From: Halobacteriales archaeon YIM A00013
GTDB lineage: Archaea; Halobacteriota; Halobacteria; Halobacteriales; Haloarculaceae
Direction: 5' to 3'
Assembly: GCA_025041195.1 (NCBI GenBank)
Contig: JAKCFM010000001.1
Location: forward strand, 2,418,001 to 2,482,000
DNA: 64,000 nucleotides
In this document: in pieces, positions 1,674 to 48,562 of the stretch
Numbering within the stretch: the first letter of the stretch is position 1
How the letters are laid out: every line of letters begins with the position of its first letter
Notes under the pieces: generated by a model
The model's database searches: none
Seen by the model: only the letters and a program-made list of their open reading frames with translations
Told to the model about the DNA's origin: nothing
Position numbers and translations under genes: made by a program

Positions 1674-4600
1674 CTACGCGGATTCGATCGCCTCGTCGAT
1701 CGCGGTGGTGAGCCGGTCGAGCGCCAGTTCGCGGTTGGTTGCCCAGTTCGGCGACCACACACGGTGAACCGTCCAGCCCAGTTGCTCTAACACCTCGCGG
1801 CGCAATCGATCTCGATCTCTGGCGGTATTGGAGCGTCGATACGCCACGCCGTCACACTCGACGCCGAGCACGTACGATCCCGGCCGTTCTGGATGCTCAA
1901 TAGCCAGATCAACGCTGTAGCCGCTACGATCTGCGGGCCGAACTACCGTGTAGCCATCCTTCGTGAGTGCTGTCTCGACGGCCGCCACGAACAGATCGGA
2001 ACTGTCGCCGTCTGCGTGTTCGAGCCCACATTGTTCGTTCTCCTCGCGTGCATACCTGAGATACCGCTTGAACAGCTCGACGCCCTTGCTGTCAGTCCGT
2101 GAACAATCGATCTCCTCCGGCAGAATCGAACTGACGACGGTGACCTGCGATTTTGCCCGGGTAATCGCCACATTGAGCCGCCGTTCCCCACCAGCTTCGT
2201 TGAGCGGGCCAAAATTCATCGAAAGCTGGCCGGTTTCGTCTGGACCATAGCCGACGCTAAACAGGAGTCGATCGCGTTCATCACCCTGAACGACCTCAAG
2301 ATTCTTGATGAAAAACTCGCTGAGTACATCATCACTGGCGACGAACGAATCGAGCGTGCTGTTCGACGCCCGCCGGCGATTGAGCGCTTCCTGGATTGCC
2401 CGCTGTTGTGCGCTGCTGAATGCGACTACGCCGAGGCTTTCGTCGGGTCGCGTTTCTGCGTGGGCTTCGATACAATCGACGACACGAACCGCCTCCGGAT
2501 GGTTTTGCCGTGTTCCGCCACGATCATACACACCATCCTCGACGTACTCGAACGTGACTCCCGTCGAATCCGCCGGCTCGCTCTCCGGAAACGTCTGTAG
2601 CCGGCCGTCGTAGAACTGCTCGTTCGAGAAGGCGATAAGTTCCTCTGCGTTGCTTCGGTAGTGCCAGCGGAGCGTCCGCTCGGGGAGCACGATTGCGGCC
2701 TCTTCCAGAATGCTGTCACTGTCTTCGCGCACTGCATCGTCGGTCGCGCTCTCGGCGGTGAAAAACGATGTCGGTGGAAGCTGCTTTCGATCACCAACGA
2801 TAATCGCTTGCTCGGCTCGCGCAATCGAACTCACCGCATCGTGTGGCTTGATCTGTGAGGCTTCATCGAAAATGACCGTATCAAACTGTATGGACGACGC
2901 CGGGCAGTACTGTGCGACAGACAGCGGACTCATCATGAAACACGGTGTGAGCGTCGTGATAAACGACCCTGCGGCATCAAATAGCGAACGCAGTGGCTCG
3001 CTCTGCTGGTCGATCTGTTGACGGAGATGCACCTCTTCTTCCCCAGGTGTGTGTCGTTCATCGAACGTTGGTTGGCGGTCTCGCACGCGCCGTTGGATCG
3101 CCGTGCGGGCTTGTTCGAGCTGTTCGGTGTCGAGCGCTCTGAACGACTCGATATATCGTTCAACTTCTGCAACGCTGAATCCCCCCAGATCGGTCTGTTC
3201 GTACACGCCATGCAGCCAATCGGTGTAAAATCCTTTCTCAAACGCAGGAACGAGCTCGGCAGGATCGTAGCTCCCTTCCAGAAACCGATCGACGTAGTCG
3301 GCAGCCACCGTCTCACGAACCGTCTCAAGCTGTGCCTCGAATGTGATGCGCTGTTGGAGTGCCGGCACGTCATCACGCCGCCCTTCGAAATATGACTGGA
3401 CCGCGGAGAACGGTGCGGCGTGTATTGGATCACCGTCAATTCGGATCTCGCTCGTATCCATCAGTGAGTCGAACGTTTTGTACGCCGTTTCGAATCGTTC
3501 GAGCAACTTGTCGGTCCGCTGTCGGATGGTTTTCACATCGGCGAGTCGATCGTCAAACAGCCGGTCTCGAACGGGAATGATCAGCTCGTCATCGAACGCA
3601 TCGAGGCCACCGATCCATTGTTGGGCCTGGATTAGCGTCTCCCAGTCCGTATCTGCGCCTGCATAAAGCGGTCCCAGTCGGTCGATTACGTCGCGATACT
3701 CCTCGCGCTCGGCTTCGATTCGCTGAATCTCTGCAAGCTGTCTGGTGTCGTCGAGGAGCTGCTCGTGGTCTGGATCGTACCCATCGCGCGCATGGTTCGT
3801 GATCGTTCGCTTCAGTGACCGATACGTGGGGTTAACGGATCGAAAGCTGCCGAATGCTGCCAGTTCATCGGTGAGCTCGATTCCATCCAGTGCGAAAAAG
3901 CTCCGCCGGTAGTTTGCTTCGAGCTCTCTGGTCTGGGTCTTTCGCGCTCGTTCGAGCGTTGCAAGCGCTTTGAGCCGTGACCCGTCGGTGACAAACGCTT
4001 CGTCGAACAGCGTGTCCCGCCAGGGGAGCTGTGGTCGATCATCGAGATGGGCAAGTAGATCGTTGACCGTTCTGAGCGTATCGATGGTTACTACTTCCAG
4101 CCCGATCGCCTCTGCTATCGATTCGCGGACAGTATCCATCTCCTTGACCGTCTCACAGAGCGTCTCAAGCGCGCGCTTGGCTTTCGTTCCAGTTTCGACA
4201 CCCCATTCTCGCAGCCGCGTGTGTCGCCACGGATTCGTCTCATAGCGGTTGATCTCCTCGTCGTACCGAGCCAGCGTCGCAAGCGCGTCGATTGCTGTGT
4301 TCACGGCCGATTCTGAAACCGCGAGCGGGTCGACGCTGCCACTGTCGATTCGTGGGGCATCAGATCGATCGGAGCGAATGCCAAACGCCTCGTAGACGGT
4401 CAGATCCCAGCCCTCTGGAGCAAACTGCAGCTGGTCGCCGTAGGCAGTGATCGCGTCTCGATGCTCGCTAAGCCGTTCGAGTGTGCTCTCTCGGTCCGGT
4501 TCGGATGCCGAGCTGGTGGTAGCGAGCGCCGTTTCGAGCGTTTCAAGCACTTGCGCTCTGTTCGCCTGCCTGCCATGAACTTCAAGACAGAACTTCTCGA

Positions 4601-7600
4601 GACCCACCTCCTGGAGCCGGCGTTTTACCACACCGAGCGCAGCCTGTTTTTCGCTCACGAATAACACCTGCTCACCAGCCGCGAGCTTCTCGGCGATAAT
4701 ATTGGCGATGGTCTGGGATTTTCCAGTCCCTGGAGGGCCCTGGAGGACGAAATTTGTCCCGCGCTTGGCTGCCTCAATAGCGGCCTGCTGGCTCGAATCA
4801 GCGTCGAGCACCTGAAACGTATCCGCAGGATCGACGGCCTGGTCGAGGCTCGCTGCGCCGGGCGGATCGATCGATTCGTGGGCAGATAGGAGGGCCGACT
4901 GGTTGCCGGCCAACGCCTGCACGACTGGATTCTCCGCAATCAGCGCTCGATTGCGCTCAAGATCGGTGTAGAGACTGAATTTCGAGGAGTCAAAACACCC
5001 GACTACGACGGTCGGTTCAATCGACGCGGTCGTGACGGCGGACAGTGCCTGAAAGACGGATTCGAACGCCGTGTCGATCGCCGAAAGCGAGAGCGCCTTG
5101 GCTGGTGGCAGCTTCACGTTGTGGGCTGTGGCCAGCTTCGTTCGGAGCGCCGGATTCAACTGGAGCCCATCCCCCCTGAGTTCGAGGCTGAATTCGCCCG
5201 AAGAGCGTGTGGCCGAGTGTGAGAGCTCGACTGGCACTAGAAACAGCGGCGATCGCATCTCACGAGCGTTTTCGTCGGGACTCCAGCACAGCATCCCGAG
5301 TGCGAGATAGAGCGACTCGACACCGCGTTCGCGACGGTGTCGTTTGGTAGCGCGCTCGATCGTCGACAAATCGCTCGACACGTTCTCAGCTACCAGCTCA
5401 CACGAGTGCGCTGGCGCGTCGGTTACACCAGGGGGCGCACTGTCAGTTTCGGTTTTCGTGGTGCCTATCCGCAGCGCACCCTCCGATTCGAGCGTTGTCG
5501 CGACGTGCGTCGGCTTCGCAGCCACAAACTTCAGCTGCGTATCTGAGGGCGCAAACGAGATCAGATCGTTTCGTCTGGAGAGATCGAGCAGCTGTGATTT
5601 GGCTTCCTCGATGAGTGCAGCAACTGCGCCGTCGTCAGCATCGGGCACTGATTGTGGTCGGTCTGAGACGACCTCGGTGATAGGCGTGGCCGCCCCGTCC
5701 CAGAACCGCTCGGTCGAGCCCTCGTTCGTCGGTGGATCGGTTACAGAGGCCGCATCGACGGCCGGTTCGCTGGGAAACTCCGCGAGCAGCGATCTAGCCG
5801 CCGCGAGTTCGTCCTCGGTGTCGACAGCGATCGGTAACGGTTCGTTCGATTCCGGCGCGATCGGACGGACCGTTTGATCGGGGAGTTTCGTAGTGTCGAT
5901 ACCAGCCAGATCCGCGTCGGTGATCGGGACGGTGTCGATGCACTGAAACTCGGTGACGGTACTGCCGTCGCCGAACAGCTCTCGATAGGAGGAAATCGTA
6001 AAATCGGTCCGATCACGCTGCTGGTCGCCGTAGCCGGCGGTGGCTCCGTCAAGGCCATCGCCATAGACGAGTGCTTCGAGGTCGGACTGCCACGCCACGA
6101 TCGGCTGTGACGCGGCGTCTTCATCGTTGAGCCCCCGGTTAGTCACAACGTACTGCACTGCGGTCTGAAAGCTCCGAAAGCACTCATAATGCTCAGCGAG
6201 CGGACTGCGTGCCTGCTCGCCTGCCGGGTGCTGCTGGTCGTCAGTTGGTTGTGGCTCAGTTGGCTGGGGATCGACTGGCTCCGGTTCGGTGGCCGCGTCC
6301 TCAAGGAACGCCCCAACTCGTGGTGCCATCTCGGCCGCGTGTTCGACGATCGTCTCTTGTGAGAGCAGGGTGGCAGCGTCGTCATCGGTTGCGTCTGCAA
6401 TGATCGATAGCGCCTCCTCGTGGAGCTCCTGCAGTGGATTTTCTCGATCGTCTGACGGCTCGATCCCGTCGGATGGGTACTCGCCAACGTGCTGCGCAAG
6501 CGCGCGACACTCCGCTTCGACCGACTCAGTGACGCGCCGAACGGTCTCCTGTGGGATGGCTGCAGCATCGAGCGCGTTCACAATTGGGCCGTCGATCGCT
6601 GATTCGTCGTCGGTTGGGGACGTCCCTTTCTCGGACGTCTCTGTCTCGGTCCCATTGTGTTGCCAGGTGTACTCCGTCCATGCGCCGAGCAACGCGGTCG
6701 CATTATCGGTGTCAGTCTCACACGCGCTTTTGAAGGCACTGAGATGGTCACGTTGGTCAGGCGCCACGGACCACGAAGTGGCCGGATCTCGTTCGAGCAG
6801 GTCGATAAACGCACTCCCCTCGGTAAGCAGTGACTCGAACAGCTCGGGATCGAGGCCGTCTGCCATCGAGAAACCAGGCAGGCGTTCGAATCGGTCACCG
6901 AGCGCACAGAAAGCGGCTGCGTGTTCGATGAGCCGCTTGCCATCCTCCCTCGGAACGGCTGCTGCTTGCGTTGGTGGGACGCCAACCACGTTGTAAAATG
7001 TTGCGTGCGTTGTGGTGTCGGTTGGATTCCGAAGAACGCGGCCAATCCGCTGGACGAGCGCCGGGTTAACGCCTCCCGTCGCCATGTTGATCGCGACCGA
7101 CGCGTGTTGCATATCCACACCCTCGCCGAGGAGATCACCGGTGCCGAGCAGGACCGAATTGGACGTTGGCGAATCGAACGCGTCGATCACCGCCCGTTGT
7201 TCGTCGCCGGTCTGCGTACTCGTCACGAGGAAGATCGATTCGGGATCCGAAAGCACGTCCTGCAGTCGTGTTTCGAGCGCCTCGACGCCGGCGTTGCTGT
7301 CGGCCAGCACAACGACGTTCTCGGACTCTGCGTGTTCGACAACGAGATCGACGATCGCATCCAACGAGGGGGTGAGATTCCACCGCTTCGTTTGTCGAGA
7401 AAACAGTCCTGTCACGAGGTTGCGAAACGTCTCATCGGTACGTTTCAACTCGTTGCCAGCGCTCGTGTGTGAGAACCGCCGCACGTCGTCGAACGTTCGT
7501 AACGGGGCGTCGGGTGCCTCGTCTATCGCTTCTTGTTCGAGCGTCGATTGGACCGTCTTGAATGCCGACGTGACGCGGTCGGTCAGCGTCTCGAGTGACG

Positions 7601-8795
7601 TTTCGACGAGCTCGTACGGCGCATACTGGACCTCCCAGTCGAACGACGGAATGACGCCATCGGCTCGGGCCTCGGCAACGGTGTAGCGTTCAAGTTCTGG
7701 ACCGACCGCATCAGAGAGCCGGGTTGTGAGCGCGGTACTGCCGTCTCCGGCCGTCCCGACCGATCCAGACAGCGCAAGGACGTTTCCAGAGAATGACTCA
7801 AGCAGCGACCCCCAGCCACTGGTTGTCGCGTAGTGGTGTGCCTCATCGAGCAACACGAGATCGTCATCGTGTCGAGGGGTATCGAGCAGTCCCTGGGGCG
7901 TCCGAAAGTGGAGTGTTCCCCACGTGAGAGTGGCGTCGTCGGCTGCGATCCGTTCCAGGGGAACGTTCAAATGTGTTGCAAACAGGCGTCGCCACTGCTC
8001 AAGCAACAGGTCATTGTGGGCAACGACCAGCACGTCCGTTCCCTCAATATCCGCCTGCAGGCCCTCCACACCCTGGTCCGTGGGATGGAGCGCGCCGTAC
8101 GCAAGCGCGATCGTCCCGAGTCCGAGGACGGTTTTTCCGGTGGCGGTTGCCATATCAACGTAACCACGCCCATCGTTCGTACACCACGCCGCAAGTGCCG
8201 ATCGCTGATGGTCCCACAACGGCACCATCATCTGGGGTTCGTCGATCAGCGCGCGCAACTCCGAACTGTTGCTGGCTGCGATCCCGTCGACGATCCGATC
8301 GATCTCCGACACCACTCCATCGTCACCGAACAGCTGCGTGGTAACATCTGCAACCGACCCGCCGGTGGCCGTGAGTGATCTCCCACCGTGTTTCAGGAGT
8401 AACTTTTCGATCACCGCCCCCGTTGCCGTCTGCACGTCCGCAATTTCGAAATTCGAAGTGCTCAATTGATAGCTCAGATCGTTCAGTTCATACACCAGTC
8501 CACCGATCGACCGGTCGGAGATATCCTCAAGCACCGACGGAACGTCGGTGTGGGTTCCCGTCGTCGTTTTCACGCCGCGACGGTAGAAGGGACCCAGTTC
8601 CCGACCGAAATTCGTCTTCGATAGATTCAGATCGCTGATCTGGATGTCCGCACTCAGATCCGTTGCAATCTCGTCGATGTAGGTGGCCCACTCCGTTTTC
8701 GGACGATCAATGAGAAACGAATCGTGGAATTTCTCTCCGGCTGATTGTAGATTCTGCGTCCGATCATCAGCGAGATCATCGATATTCCGCACCAT
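1674..8795 (-). CDS. giant SF2 helicase-DUF4011-SF1 helicase-PD-(D/E)XK nuclease
   Basis: A single 2373-residue frame with two motors and a nuclease. Part 1: SF2 helicase, Walker A with A-T-G-K-T near residue 215-220, D-E-A-H near 317, helicase C domain with motif VI Q-R-I-G-R-V-L-R near 585. Part 2 (about 600-1050): helical region and an acidic Pro/Thr linker (near 850), function unknown. Part 3: DUF4011-like segment from about 1060, then an SF1 Upf1/Dna2-like helicase with G-P-P-G-T-G-K-S near 1355, D-E-A-S-Q near 1975 and N-V-A-I-T-R-A-K near 2210. Part 4: a C-terminal Vsr/MTES_1575-type nuclease (about 2270-2373) with V-E-C-D-G near 2315 and an R-D-R-D-R-L-R segment. DUF4011-helicase-Vsr proteins are known antiviral candidates (Hhe-type, as I recall); the added N-terminal SF2 helicase is unusual. 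No methylase or other partner is adjacent. Start ATG is backed by a TATA-like stretch upstream. Confidence 0.9.
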   Translation of the reverse strand: MVRNIDDLADDRTQNLQSAGEKFHDSFLIDRPKTEWATYIDEIATDLSADIQISDLNLSKTNFGRELGPFYRRGVKTTTGTHTDVPSVLEDISDRSIGGLVYELNDLSYQLSTSNFEIADVQTATGAVIEKLLLKHGGRSLTATGGSVADVTTQLFGDDGVVSEIDRIVDGIAASNSSELRALIDEPQMMVPLWDHQRSALAAWCTNDGRGYVDMATATGKTVLGLGTIALAYGALHPTDQGVEGLQADIEGTDVLVVAHNDLLLEQWRRLFATHLNVPLERIAADDATLTWGTLHFRTPQGLLDTPRHDDDLVLLDEAHHYATTSGWGSLLESFSGNVLALSGSVGTAGDGSTALTTRLSDAVGPELERYTVAEARADGVIPSFDWEVQYAPYELVETSLETLTDRVTSAFKTVQSTLEQEAIDEAPDAPLRTFDDVRRFSHTSAGNELKRTDETFRNLVTGLFSRQTKRWNLTPSLDAIVDLVVEHAESENVVVLADSNAGVEALETRLQDVLSDPESIFLVTSTQTGDEQRAVIDAFDSPTSNSVLLGTGDLLGEGVDMQHASVAINMATGGVNPALVQRIGRVLRNPTDTTTHATFYNVVGVPPTQAAAVPREDGKRLIEHAAAFCALGDRFERLPGFSMADGLDPELFESLLTEGSAFIDLLERDPATSWSVAPDQRDHLSAFKSACETDTDNATALLGAWTEYTWQHNGTETETSEKGTSPTDDESAIDGPIVNALDAAAIPQETVRRVTESVEAECRALAQHVGEYPSDGIEPSDDRENPLQELHEEALSIIADATDDDAATLLSQETIVEHAAEMAPRVGAFLEDAATEPEPVDPQPTEPQPTDDQQHPAGEQARSPLAEHYECFRSFQTAVQYVVTNRGLNDEDAASQPIVAWQSDLEALVYGDGLDGATAGYGDQQRDRTDFTISSYRELFGDGSTVTEFQCIDTVPITDADLAGIDTTKLPDQTVRPIAPESNEPLPIAVDTEDELAAARSLLAEFPSEPAVDAASVTDPPTNEGSTERFWDGAATPITEVVSDRPQSVPDADDGAVAALIEEAKSQLLDLSRRNDLISFAPSDTQLKFVAAKPTHVATTLESEGALRIGTTKTETDSAPPGVTDAPAHSCELVAENVSSDLSTIERATKRHRRERGVESLYLALGMLCWSPDENAREMRSPLFLVPVELSHSATRSSGEFSLELRGDGLQLNPALRTKLATAHNVKLPPAKALSLSAIDTAFESVFQALSAVTTASIEPTVVVGCFDSSKFSLYTDLERNRALIAENPVVQALAGNQSALLSAHESIDPPGAASLDQAVDPADTFQVLDADSSQQAAIEAAKRGTNFVLQGPPGTGKSQTIANIIAEKLAAGEQVLFVSEKQAALGVVKRRLQEVGLEKFCLEVHGRQANRAQVLETLETALATTSSASEPDRESTLERLSEHRDAITAYGDQLQFAPEGWDLTVYEAFGIRSDRSDAPRIDSGSVDPLAVSESAVNTAIDALATLARYDEEINRYETNPWRHTRLREWGVETGTKAKRALETLCETVKEMDTVRESIAEAIGLEVVTIDTLRTVNDLLAHLDDRPQLPWRDTLFDEAFVTDGSRLKALATLERARKTQTRELEANYRRSFFALDGIELTDELAAFGSFRSVNPTYRSLKRTITNHARDGYDPDHEQLLDDTRQLAEIQRIEAEREEYRDVIDRLGPLYAGADTDWETLIQAQQWIGGLDAFDDELIIPVRDRLFDDRLADVKTIRQRTDKLLERFETAYKTFDSLMDTSEIRIDGDPIHAAPFSAVQSYFEGRRDDVPALQQRITFEAQLETVRETVAADYVDRFLEGSYDPAELVPAFEKGFYTDWLHGVYEQTDLGGFSVAEVERYIESFRALDTEQLEQARTAIQRRVRDRQPTFDERHTPGEEEVHLRQQIDQQSEPLRSLFDAAGSFITTLTPCFMMSPLSVAQYCPASSIQFDTVIFDEASQIKPHDAVSSIARAEQAIIVGDRKQLPPTSFFTAESATDDAVREDSDSILEEAAIVLPERTLRWHYRSNAEELIAFSNEQFYDGRLQTFPESEPADSTGVTFEYVEDGVYDRGGTRQNHPEAVRVVDCIEAHAETRPDESLGVVAFSSAQQRAIQEALNRRRASNSTLDSFVASDDVLSEFFIKNLEVVQGDERDRLLFSVGYGPDETGQLSMNFGPLNEAGGERRLNVAITRAKSQVTVVSSILPEEIDCSRTDSKGVELFKRYLRYAREENEQCGLEHADGDSSDLFVAAVETALTKDGYTVVRPADRSGYSVDLAIEHPERPGSYVLGVECDGVAYRRSNTARDRDRLRREVLEQLGWTVHRVWSPNWATNRELALDRLTTAIDEAIESA

Positions 8796-45876: not shown

Positions 45877-47835
45877 TCACGGGTTATTCTCCCGTATCAC
45901 ACCTAATAGAGCATCCAATTCTTTGCTAGTTAGTCCGAACTCTTTATCATAACTAGAATCGTCCTGCGGACCAACTGTATAGTGGTGAATGTTATTCAAA
46001 TTTGATTCAAAATCACTTACACTCACTCCTTGTGACTCTTCCAAATGATCAACAGTATTGTTGTTAAATGCATCTTTTTCACTTTTGATCTGGCTTTGCG
46101 CGTCACTATGTTTTCCTTTACCACTTTTTACTTGAAATGTTGCAATCACTTCATTACTTTCATCATTTGCTACAACCCAATCTATCTCGGTTATATCCAT
46201 ATCATTTTTATCTTTCAATTCTACTTCTGGTATATATCTATGGCCTTCAGTAGATGGATACATATCCGTAATAACATCTTTTGCAACTATTTCACCAAAC
46301 TTTCCTTGAGCTCCACTTTTCGAATTGGGTAATCGTTTACCGGAGTTCTGATATTGTTCGAGAGCCTTGTTCATTCCCTGGACATTATATTCCTTATTGT
46401 TACTCCATTCGATGACTGTCTCCCGCGGGACACCCTTGTCTATGAGATCATTCATAGCCTGGTGATCCTCTTTCTTTCCGCCACCGTCTGAAAGAAGCCG
46501 AGACCCATTTTGGATTTTCCGACGTGGCGTCTTCTCTTCATCATTCTCTTCCTGTTGGTGTTGCTCGTGCTCGTACTGGGCCGACTCGTCGTTTTTGACC
46601 TCTTCCATTTCCTCCGTGGTCCCTTTGACCACGTACCCTTCGTAGATCCAGAGCGTGATTTCGCCGTTACCATGTGGGTTATCCCCAACGACGACCGTGT
46701 ACCCATCCTCGGAACGGACTTTGTTTGGCTGTTTTAGAATTTCACCAACAGCAGTTGGTGTATTTTTGCGGGTAAAACCAGGCAGCTGGGTGAGCTGTTC
46801 GATCCCAAAGATCCGTTCATTTCCGCTGGGTGTCTCATATCCACCCGCACCAGTTGGAAGCCGGAGCGGCGAAGTGAACTGTCCTCCTGTCGCATCCGGT
46901 GGATACACGGCGAGTGTCGTCAGCGCTCCATGGGTTGTTGCCGGTCCACCTGCTGGCTGGGAGCCGTGCTCCAGGAGCATGATACCGCTCGCTAGAACTA
47001 CCGTTCCCTTCCGCAGAACCCACGAACCACTCCGGAAGACGTAGGTCTCTGAATTCCCCGGGAGGGTTCTGCTCACGGTGGATGTGACGGTGCCAGCAAC
47101 ACCAATGAGTTTGTCACCGAGACTATTATCGTCGTTTTTGGGCTCCTCTGCCAGCTCCGAATGCAACTCTCCCATTCGGGTTTTCATATCTCCGGACAGC
47201 TCTGGCGAACCACCGGGCATCGCCGGCCCGGTGATGGAATCGTCGGTTTCGGGGTTTGAATTTTCACTTCTGGATTGATTCCCCGTGGGATCGCTAGAAC
47301 TGTCATCCACTGCCGGACCTGTTCCGTCCGAACTCGCATGGATGGTCATCGATGACAGAAGCGTCTCCGCTTTTCCTGTGTATCCACGGGTGTCAACGCG
47401 GATACCCACTGCCTGTTGCTCTCCAGATGTGAGCTCCATTGCGTTCTCTGACCGATCAATCGGCCCGTTCTCGGTTTCGAACGTCACCCGGTCGCTGCTA
47501 TCGTTTAGCCAGACTGTGACCGGACCAGTACCCTGGTTGGTAATCGTAAAAACATCGGAGACAACTGTTACTGCGTTAGAATTGACGCCATCCCCCAAAG
47601 ATTCCGTTTGCGATGGCGAAAGTGATACGCGTAATTTACCGTTAACTTGTGATGCGTACGCTCCGTTGGGTCCCTCGGCCGGTGTGAGCGCAAGATAACT
47701 GCTCGCATCACCTACAACATCGACGCTCGCATCTCGCTGAGTGGATGCCGAATCGAACGCACCAGTTCCGTATACGACGCTAAGGACGATCCCAAGAACG
47801 ATCAGAATACTGGCGAGCTGACGGGACTGGTTCAT
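45877..47835 (-). CDS. exported protein with C-terminal PD-(D/E)XK-like nuclease (candidate polymorphic toxin)
   Basis: A 652-residue protein. A Sec-type signal or anchor (residues 8-26) leads into a beta-rich domain (about 27-170) resembling haloarchaeal SipW/DUF1102-type secreted domains. A Ser/Asp/Gly-rich linker (about 170-215) follows, then an alpha/beta region with W-I-Y-E-G-Y near residue 395 and a highly charged linker. The C-terminus (about 505-605) has G-K-F-G-E-I-V-A-K, then I-T-E-I-D-W-V-V and F-Q-V-K-S-G-K, the alpha-beta pattern of a PD-(D/E)XK nuclease (E...D...Q-x-K). This is the layout of a polymorphic toxin: export head, linker, swappable toxic tip. Base composition falls steeply towards the tip. 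A small gene of the same composition follows as possible immunity. No family match could be searched. Confidence 0.75.
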   Translation of the reverse strand: MNQSRQLASILIVLGIVLSVVYGTGAFDSASTQRDASVDVVGDASSYLALTPAEGPNGAYASQVNGKLRVSLSPSQTESLGDGVNSNAVTVVSDVFTITNQGTGPVTVWLNDSSDRVTFETENGPIDRSENAMELTSGEQQAVGIRVDTRGYTGKAETLLSSMTIHASSDGTGPAVDDSSSDPTGNQSRSENSNPETDDSITGPAMPGGSPELSGDMKTRMGELHSELAEEPKNDDNSLGDKLIGVAGTVTSTVSRTLPGNSETYVFRSGSWVLRKGTVVLASGIMLLEHGSQPAGGPATTHGALTTLAVYPPDATGGQFTSPLRLPTGAGGYETPSGNERIFGIEQLTQLPGFTRKNTPTAVGEILKQPNKVRSEDGYTVVVGDNPHGNGEITLWIYEGYVVKGTTEEMEEVKNDESAQYEHEQHQQEENDEEKTPRRKIQNGSRLLSDGGGKKEDHQAMNDLIDKGVPRETVIEWSNNKEYNVQGMNKALEQYQNSGKRLPNSKSGAQGKFGEIVAKDVITDMYPSTEGHRYIPEVELKDKNDMDITEIDWVVANDESNEVIATFQVKSGKGKHSDAQSQIKSEKDAFNNNTVDHLEESQGVSVSDFESNLNNIHHYTVGPQDDSSYDKEFGLTSKELDALLGVIRENNP

Positions 47836-47860
47836 ATATTGATACTTCCATTATCATTCA

Positions 47861-47872
47861 CATATACTTATA
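47861..47872 (-). promoter_or_regulatory. TATA-like element of the toxin gene
   Basis: A TATAAGTATATG-type stretch on the reverse strand, 26-37 bases before the ATG at 47835, in a very AT-rich leader (47836-47945). Confidence 0.4.
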
Positions 47873-47947
47873 TTGTAGTGATTTCCAAATTTATATCTTA
47901 AAAGATATATTTCATTATCGAATGAATTTCATTCTAATCTTAATTGG

Positions 47948-48562
47948 TCACAGAGTTATTGGTTGTAGTCGGATGAGAAGCAGTACTGGGATCAACACGG
48001 CGATGAACGCGCGTCGTACAGAGATATTGCATGTATGTTTGACCACGAACACCCAGATGTAACACCCCCATAGGATCGTTGCTGCATAGAGATACAGTGC
48101 GGCGGTCACAATTGGATCTGATTTCACCAATTGTACGTGGAACGATAGTTGGGAAATGGTTGGGTCCTGCCCTACTGGTATCCCCTGAACAGCCACTACT
48201 ATGGAAAGGAAAAGAAAACTGAGACTTATGAGAAACGGGAGAAAGCCAAAGCTCAGAAGGACTAACTGCCGACGGAACGGGCCCGAACCGCCTAGCACGG
48301 AGGAAATCCCCCATGTAATGGCTCCAAGCAGGAACCATTTAACGAGAATAACGGGCACCGACGTGACACTCATACCAACAACCATGGAGATTTTTGCCGC
48401 CGTATCTATAGAAAAATTAAATATAATAGGAACGATAACCATAATGGTCAACAGCATATACGCGACCAAGATACTGATTGGATCCAGTAGCTGTACTTCG
48501 GAGTCGTCACCAGCAAAATATTCGTCCGGATGGAACAGTACGGTCCGAAGCGTCGAGATCAT
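47948..48562 (-). CDS. YIP1-like integral membrane protein
   Basis: A 204-residue protein with about five membrane helices. Features of Yip1/YIPF-like archaeal and bacterial membrane proteins are a helix-loop pattern with P-D-E-Y-F-A-G-D-D near the start and a final V-V-V-x-H-T-C segment. The ATG at 48562 gives M-I-S-T-L-R-T-V-L-F-H-P-D-E-Y; this reading is preferred over a frame extending to 48694. Function in archaea is unknown. It lies directly upstream of the toxin-immunity pair in the same direction (112 bases), so it may belong to that accessory set, for instance as an export or membrane partner (inference). Confidence 0.7.
   Translation of the reverse strand: MISTLRTVLFHPDEYFAGDDSEVQLLDPISILVAYMLLTIMVIVPIIFNFSIDTAAKISMVVGMSVTSVPVILVKWFLLGAITWGISSVLGGSGPFRRQLVLLSFGFLPFLISLSFLFLSIVVAVQGIPVGQDPTISQLSFHVQLVKSDPIVTAALYLYAATILWGCYIWVFVVKHTCNISVRRAFIAVLIPVLLLIRLQPITL

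What the first reader, a model, noticed from the sequence alone, without database searches (positions are those of the whole stretch)
1674..8795. Single 2373-aa protein fusing an SF2 helicase, a DUF4011/SF1 helicase and a PD-(D/E)XK nuclease
Seen: two complete helicase motor sets and a C-terminal nuclease in one frame (Walker A near 215 and 1355, D-E-A-H near 317, D-E-A-S-Q near 1975, V-E-C-D-G near 2315). Known: DUF4011-helicase-Vsr proteins are antiviral candidates in other prokaryotes. The extra SF2 helicase at the N-terminus, in a haloarchaeon and without a methylase or partner gene, looks like a distinct one-gene defence architecture. Residues 600-1050 have no recognisable domain.
Basis: partly seen in the sequence, partly recalled or inferred. 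Interest (0 to 1): 0.85.

Follow-up and report, generated by a model that had tools for sequence, protein, structure and literature searches.

The report
Two-helicase, one-nuclease haloarchaeal fusion protein
A salt-loving archaeon carries one very large gene whose protein joins two different DNA motors, a previously undescribed linker domain and a DNA-cutting domain; the same fusion occurs patchily in other salt-loving archaea, and it is probably a one-gene defence against viruses or plasmids, though no test has shown this.

Summary
It is not an assembly artefact. A second Halocatena genome has it at 85% identity, with syntenic flanks and overall dN/dS 0.18. I found the fusion in 10 haloarchaeal genomes of four families, monophyletic in the N-half tree (99/99) and weakly so in the C-half tree (88/77).

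The C-half belongs to the DUF4011-helicase-nuclease kind (PDC-S37, ProA, Gao Hhe). The N-half is a haloarchaeal module not annotated as one family. Elsewhere it is a separate gene, usually followed directly by a DNA-binding-repeat protein or by an AddAB-like nuclease-helicase pair. The 'blank' middle contains a confidently folded ~155-aa domain (MID, residues 861-1016) with no Pfam or PDB match. MID recurs beside Pbe, BREX and Druantia/BrxHI-like genes.

Two residues conserved in the relatives' nuclease (Gln at 2287, His at 2320) are Pro and Arg in both Halocatena copies, so cutting by this copy is uncertain.

Best reading: a one-gene, modification-independent DNA-surveillance helicase-nuclease, probably defence. 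New variant of a known kind; function inferred, not shown.

The parts
1674..8795 (-). complete gene, 2373 aa, single frame
   Evidence: conserved full length in a second Halocatena genome, 85% identity, dN/dS 0.18
8241..8795 (-). residues 1-185: all-helical N-terminal domain without Pfam match, conserved in the N-module family; no HKD (PLD) motif
6876..8240 (-). residues 186-640: SF2 motor, XPB/Rad25-like (ResIII + Helicase_C; motifs I, II, VI intact)
6231..6875 (-). residues 641-855: helical segment then fast-evolving, low-confidence linker; in eight related fusions this stretch is longer, with DUF5797 and HNH_repeat in the one scanned
5748..6215 (-). residues 861-1016: MID, a folded domain with no Pfam family or PDB fold match, recurrent in haloarchaeal proteins near defence genes
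5133..5594 (-). residues 1068-1221: DUF4011
2127..4790 (-). residues 1336-2223: SF1 (UPF1/SMUBP2-like) motor split by a long insert; motifs I, II, VI intact
1698..1991 (-). residues 2269-2366: MTES_1575 (Vsr-like) PD-(D/E)XK domain; D2296 and E2313 kept, family Gln and His replaced by P2287 and R2320

Best explanation
A one-gene DNA-surveillance and DNA-processing machine, most likely defence against viruses or plasmids. Inferred steps: (1) the XPB-like SF2 module with its helical N-domain engages and translocates on double-stranded DNA; (2) MID, and in most relatives extra DNA-binding repeats in the linker, helps recognise or hold a foreign or replication-type DNA structure; (3) the DUF4011-SF1 motor is loaded on the exposed strand, and (4) the C-terminal Vsr-like domain cuts or nicks. 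As no methylase or other modification gene is linked, self/non-self choice would rest on DNA structure (ends, forks, nicks) rather than on a modification mark. Shown: domain anatomy, intact motor motifs, one origin of the fusion (strong on the N-half), purifying selection, patchy distribution, pairing of the same N-module elsewhere with separate helicase-nuclease operons. Inferred: the defence role, the order of action, and cutting by this copy.
For: C-half matches antiphage and defence-candidate profiles over its whole length (PDC-S37 1213 bits; ProA 1163 bits, sub-cutoff; Hhe), and its homologues lie on many plasmids (338 records). Fusion patchy: 8 of 391 Halobacteria, 2 of 7 Halocatena. Fusion clade one branch in the N tree (99/99, 100% of bootstraps) and in the C tree (88/77). 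When not fused, the same N-module is followed on the same strand by HNH_repeat DNA-binding proteins in 10 loci, or by an AddB-like PD-(D/E)XK nuclease plus UvrD helicase (G337, G201, G090, and an annotated operon on Haloferax plasmid pSVX82-3). MID and N-module genes sit beside PbeA/PbeC and BrxB/BrxC. SF2 closest to XPB by sequence and fold. dN/dS 0.07-0.23 in all folded domains except DUF4011 (0.49).
Against: No defence assay exists. The window locus is not in a defence island: flanks are an HxlR regulator, a 5'-nucleotidase, a dicarboxylate symporter, Fe-ADH and a CCA-adding enzyme. Two family-conserved nuclease residues are changed in both Halocatena copies. The profile matches cover the C-half only, and ProA and Hhe are below their curated cut-offs. 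No N-module relative was found in viral contigs, so no link to mobile viruses was seen.
Confidence: 0.55

Rival explanations
1. A lineage-specific DNA-repair or recombination helicase-nuclease (XPB-Bax1 or AddAB analogue) without an immune role.
For: SF2 half is closest to archaeal XPB, which works with the nuclease Bax1; N-module relatives pair with AddAB-like helicase-nucleases; the Halocatena copy is in a housekeeping neighbourhood kept in two species and under purifying selection.
Against: Very patchy across the class; related modules on plasmids and next to Pbe and BREX genes; C-half matches anti-phage families.
Confidence: 0.2
2. An RNA- or transcript-directed defence like Mokosh: the SF1 half acts on viral RNA or R-loops.
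For: SF1 half is UPF1/SMUBP2/SEN1-like and weakly matches MkoA/MkoC.
Against: SF2 half is XPB-like (DNA), companions are DNA-binding HNH_repeat/HHH proteins, nuclease is of the Vsr-like kind.
Confidence: 0.12
3. A defence protein whose nuclease is weakened or dead in Halocatena: it blocks replication or strips proteins with its two motors instead of cutting DNA (as reported for DndCDEA-PbeABCD, which halts viral replication without degradation, PMC6459918). This overlaps with the best explanation; it differs only in the last step.
For: Gln2287Pro and His2320Arg at positions conserved in relatives, both Halocatena copies; N-module resembles PbeA (70 bits).
Against: D2296, E2313 and D2315 remain, and REase dN/dS is 0.16, which argues against decay.
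Confidence: 0.25

Closest known systems
PADLOC PDC-S37 / NCBIfam NF058533 anti-phage protein ProA
   Same: DUF4011, SF1 motor and MTES_1575-type REase, aligned over residues 1046-2372
   Different: below ProA's equivalog cut-off (1163 vs 1500 bits); those models do not cover the SF2-MID half, and the Halocatena protein ends at profile position 1344 of 1550 (PDC-S37)
Hhe (Gao Hhe, DUF4011-helicase-Vsr; 'Gao' label as listed in PMC11291487, architecture from my own knowledge)
   Same: same three-part order in the C-half
   Different: 717 bits against a 2000-bit cut-off; no SF2-MID half in the model match
PbeA of PbeABCD (PLD nuclease + SF2; PMC6459918, PMC10853773)
   Same: SF2 core residues 188-622 match PbeA profile 248-647 (70 bits); related N-modules lie beside pbe genes
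   Different: N-terminal domain is all-helical without HKD motif; no pbeBCD or dnd gene at the window locus; effector is SF1-REase in the same chain
Archaeal XPB-Bax1 and Hachiman HamAB (PMC12278908)
   Same: SF2 DNA motor coupled to a nuclease
   Different: separate subunits and unrelated nucleases; no second motor
Own-genome paralogue on contig C3 (168781-172872; 1641 aa)
   Same: C-half 44% identical, DUF4011-SF1-REase
   Different: no SF2, no MID; family-typical QV and YH in the nuclease

Membership tests
DUF4011-SF1-REase kind (PDC-S37 / ProA / Hhe) | DUF4011, then SF1 motor, then MTES_1575/Vsr-like nuclease in one chain | tested here: met
ProA (NF058533 equivalog) | whole-protein score at or above 1500 bits | tested here: not met
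   1163.5 bits; may work like it, but is not an equivalog
Hhe (NF042953 equivalog) | whole-protein score at or above 2000 bits | tested here: not met
   717.4 bits
DUF4011-SF1-REase kind (PDC-S37 / ProA / Hhe) | family-typical nuclease site (Q..D..ExD..H in the homologues aligned here; a pattern seen here, not a published criterion) | tested here: inconclusive
   D2296, E2313 and D2315 present; Gln is P2287 and His is R2320 in both Halocatena copies; the other fusions checked keep both
DUF4011-SF1-REase kind (PDC-S37 / ProA / Hhe) | protects against phage or virus | not testable with these tools
   needs a plaque assay
PbeA | N-terminal PLD (HKD) nuclease fused to SF2 | tested here: not met
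   no HxKx4D in residues 1-185; all-helical model
PbeABCD system | pbeB, pbeC, pbeD adjacent | tested here: not met
   window flanks are housekeeping genes
XPB/Rad25 SF2 subfamily | sequence and fold closest to XPB | tested here: met
   profile E 1.2e-16 to RAD25 chains; Foldseek top hits XPB, E 5.6e-13
Restriction-modification | linked methylase or other modification gene | tested here: not met
   none among the flanking proteins scanned at the window locus; fused homologues lack a conserved close partner

The most novel reading that the evidence does not exclude
The helical-SF2 module plus MID is a shared sensor/adaptor platform of haloarchaeal immunity: one conserved front end that has been joined, as gene neighbours or as fusions, to different back ends (HNH_repeat DNA-binding scaffolds, AddAB-like nuclease-helicases, Pbe genes, DUF4011-SF1-REase). 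The window gene is the form in which the whole machine has become one polypeptide.
Probability: 0.35. Interest if true: 0.7.

Novelty: new variant of a known kind. Interest (0 to 1): 0.5.

Why it matters
It links two defence-type helicase classes that are usually separate, gives a single-gene candidate that could be moved and tested in a haloarchaeal host, and exposes a domain (MID) with no database entry that may mark haloarchaeal defence genes. Because the same N-module occurs both as a fusion and as an operon partner of helicase-nucleases, it gives a testable prediction about which proteins work together.

Tried and rejected
Assembly or frameshift fusion: rejected, a second genome has the same chain. 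N-terminal PLD nuclease as in PbeA: rejected, no HKD motif and all-helical model. MID as a known fold: no Pfam family matched convincingly in any of 23 members and no PDB hit better than E 2.5. Empty-site comparison in other Halocatena species: not possible, the flanks are not orthologous there. Fusion on viruses: viral-contig scan with the N-module found no relative. Recent transfer by composition: GC of the gene (57-61%) is that of the window. Paper searches for PDC-S37 and for ProA with DUF4011 gave nothing, so the source of the ProA name was not read.

Full report
WHAT IS THERE. The window comes from a Halocatena genome (G000; its nearest held relative is CP071306, whose genus NCBI taxonomy gives as Halocatena). 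Window 1674-8795 is one 2373-aa frame on the minus strand. Pfam places ResIII and Helicase_C (SF2) in residues 193-590, DUF4011 at 1068-1221, the split SF1 motor (AAA_11/AAA_12) up to 2222 and the MTES_1575 REase at 2269-2366. A second Halocatena genome carries the whole chain at 85% identity with the same flanks at 93% each. dN/dS is 0.18 overall: 0.12 in SF2, 0.17 in MID, 0.07-0.23 in the SF1 parts, 0.16 in the REase, but 0.49 in both the linker and DUF4011. So it is a real, maintained gene.

THE C-HALF. It aligns end to end with PADLOC PDC-S37 (1213 bits) and NCBIfam anti-phage ProA (1163 bits, cut-off 1500), and more weakly with Hhe. Related genes are common on plasmids (338 records, mostly bacterial), and the genome has its own SF2-less paralogue on contig C3 (44%). 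The kind is therefore known; the equivalog cut-offs are not met, so I do not file it as ProA or Hhe.

THE N-HALF. Residues 1-640 form a module conserved as a unit in Halobacteria: 48 of 391 sampled genomes match at E <= 1e-30, some of them only over the SF2 core. In a phylum-wide sample the non-halobacterial hits cover only the SF2 core or slightly more, never the whole module. The AlphaFold model (pLDDT 80) shows an all-helical residue 1-185 domain and an SF2 motor whose closest solved relatives are XPB/Rad25. The SF2 core also matches PbeA, but the PLD nuclease that defines PbeA (PMC10853773, PMC6459918) is absent.

THE MIDDLE. Residues 641-855 are a variable linker. In eight other fusions it is longer, and in the one scanned it holds DUF5797 and two HNH_repeat units. 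Residues 861-1016 (MID) are a conserved domain: 48 of 391 Halobacteria have it at E <= 1e-10. Its model is confident (pLDDT 84, pTM 0.80), no Pfam family fits and there is no PDB fold match. MID is also found with HNH_repeat/HHH proteins, with a calcineurin-like phosphoesterase next to BrxB/BrxC, next to PbeC, and next to ~1576-aa helicases, one of which matched DruE/BrxHI models.

DISTRIBUTION AND ORIGIN. I found the fusion in 10 genomes of four families (G000, G001, G058, G097, G161, G169, G206, G215, G303, G330). In trees the fused genes form one branch for the N-module (99/99, all bootstraps) and, less firmly, for the C-half (88/77). One fusion followed by spread or loss fits. The Halocatena form is the shortest; the others carry the longer linker and C-terminal extensions (one scanned example has zinc-finger-like and PH-like matches).

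CONTEXT. Where the N-module is a separate gene, it is followed on the same strand by an HNH_repeat protein in 10 loci (gaps -4 to 257 nt), or by an AddB-like PD-(D/E)XK protein and a UvrD helicase in G337, G201, G090 and an annotated operon on Haloferax plasmid pSVX82-3 (G201 assigned by matching gene sizes and starts). The fused genes stand alone, without a conserved close partner. The window locus itself lies among housekeeping genes, so the defence context comes from relatives, not from the window. Gene boundaries in these loci come from my own ORF caller, not from curated annotation.

THE NUCLEASE CAVEAT. In the homologues compared, the REase reads Q(V/I/L)..D..(I/V)ECDG..YH (one divergent homologue, L067, has VGS and LCDG). 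D2296, E2313 and D2315 are kept here, but the Gln is Pro2287 and the His is Arg2320. Both Halocatena copies carry the Arg and the same RPAD stretch; the eight other fusions keep Gln and His. The His lies seven residues after the Glu, the spacing of the catalytic His in Vsr (my own knowledge; a paper search did not confirm it). Purifying selection on the domain (0.16) argues against simple decay. Whether this copy cuts is open.

MECHANISM. The most economical reading is a one-chain DNA surveillance machine: an XPB-like dsDNA motor and MID find and hold a target structure, the DUF4011-SF1 motor is loaded, and the Vsr-like domain cuts or nicks. Pairing of the same front end with separate helicase-nucleases is the main evidence that the halves work together. 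The anti-viral role is an inference from family and context, at about 0.55.

NOVELTY. The kind (DUF4011-SF1-REase defence candidate) is known; the XPB-like front end, the MID domain and the fusion are not described in any library or paper I could search. Hence 'new variant of a known kind'.

Noticed in passing
G000 contig C3 168781-172872 (locus L009: 8086-13011): SF2-less paralogue of the C-half (1641 aa) on what may be a plasmid contig, with a 1542-aa gene ~1.1 kb upstream on the same strand that weakly matches TraG-D_C.
   Followed up: partly
L163, L164, L172: A ~400-438-aa MID protein, fused to a calcineurin-like phosphoesterase in the one scanned, lies divergently next to BrxB/BrxC genes in haloarchaea; possibly a BREX accessory.
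   Followed up: partly
L065, L110, L111, L115, L118, L166: A ~413-aa TGT-like protein paired with a ~518-aa HATPase protein recurs near N-module or MID genes; could be a deazaguanine-type DNA modification pair (Pfam on L115 only).
   Followed up: no
L166, L170, L171, L118: A ~1576-aa helicase (one scanned: DruE/BrxHI/SngC/DpdJ-like matches) with ~980-aa and ~278-aa partners recurs beside MID genes; looks like an unclassified haloarchaeal defence operon.
   Followed up: no
window 46001-48000: GC drops to 48.5% against about 58-60% in most of the window.
   Followed up: no
L060 6063-9746, L061 2806-7749: Proteins with 9 and 11 tandem HNH_repeat (homing-endonuclease-associated) units directly downstream of N-module genes; no nuclease domain recognised.
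   Followed up: partly
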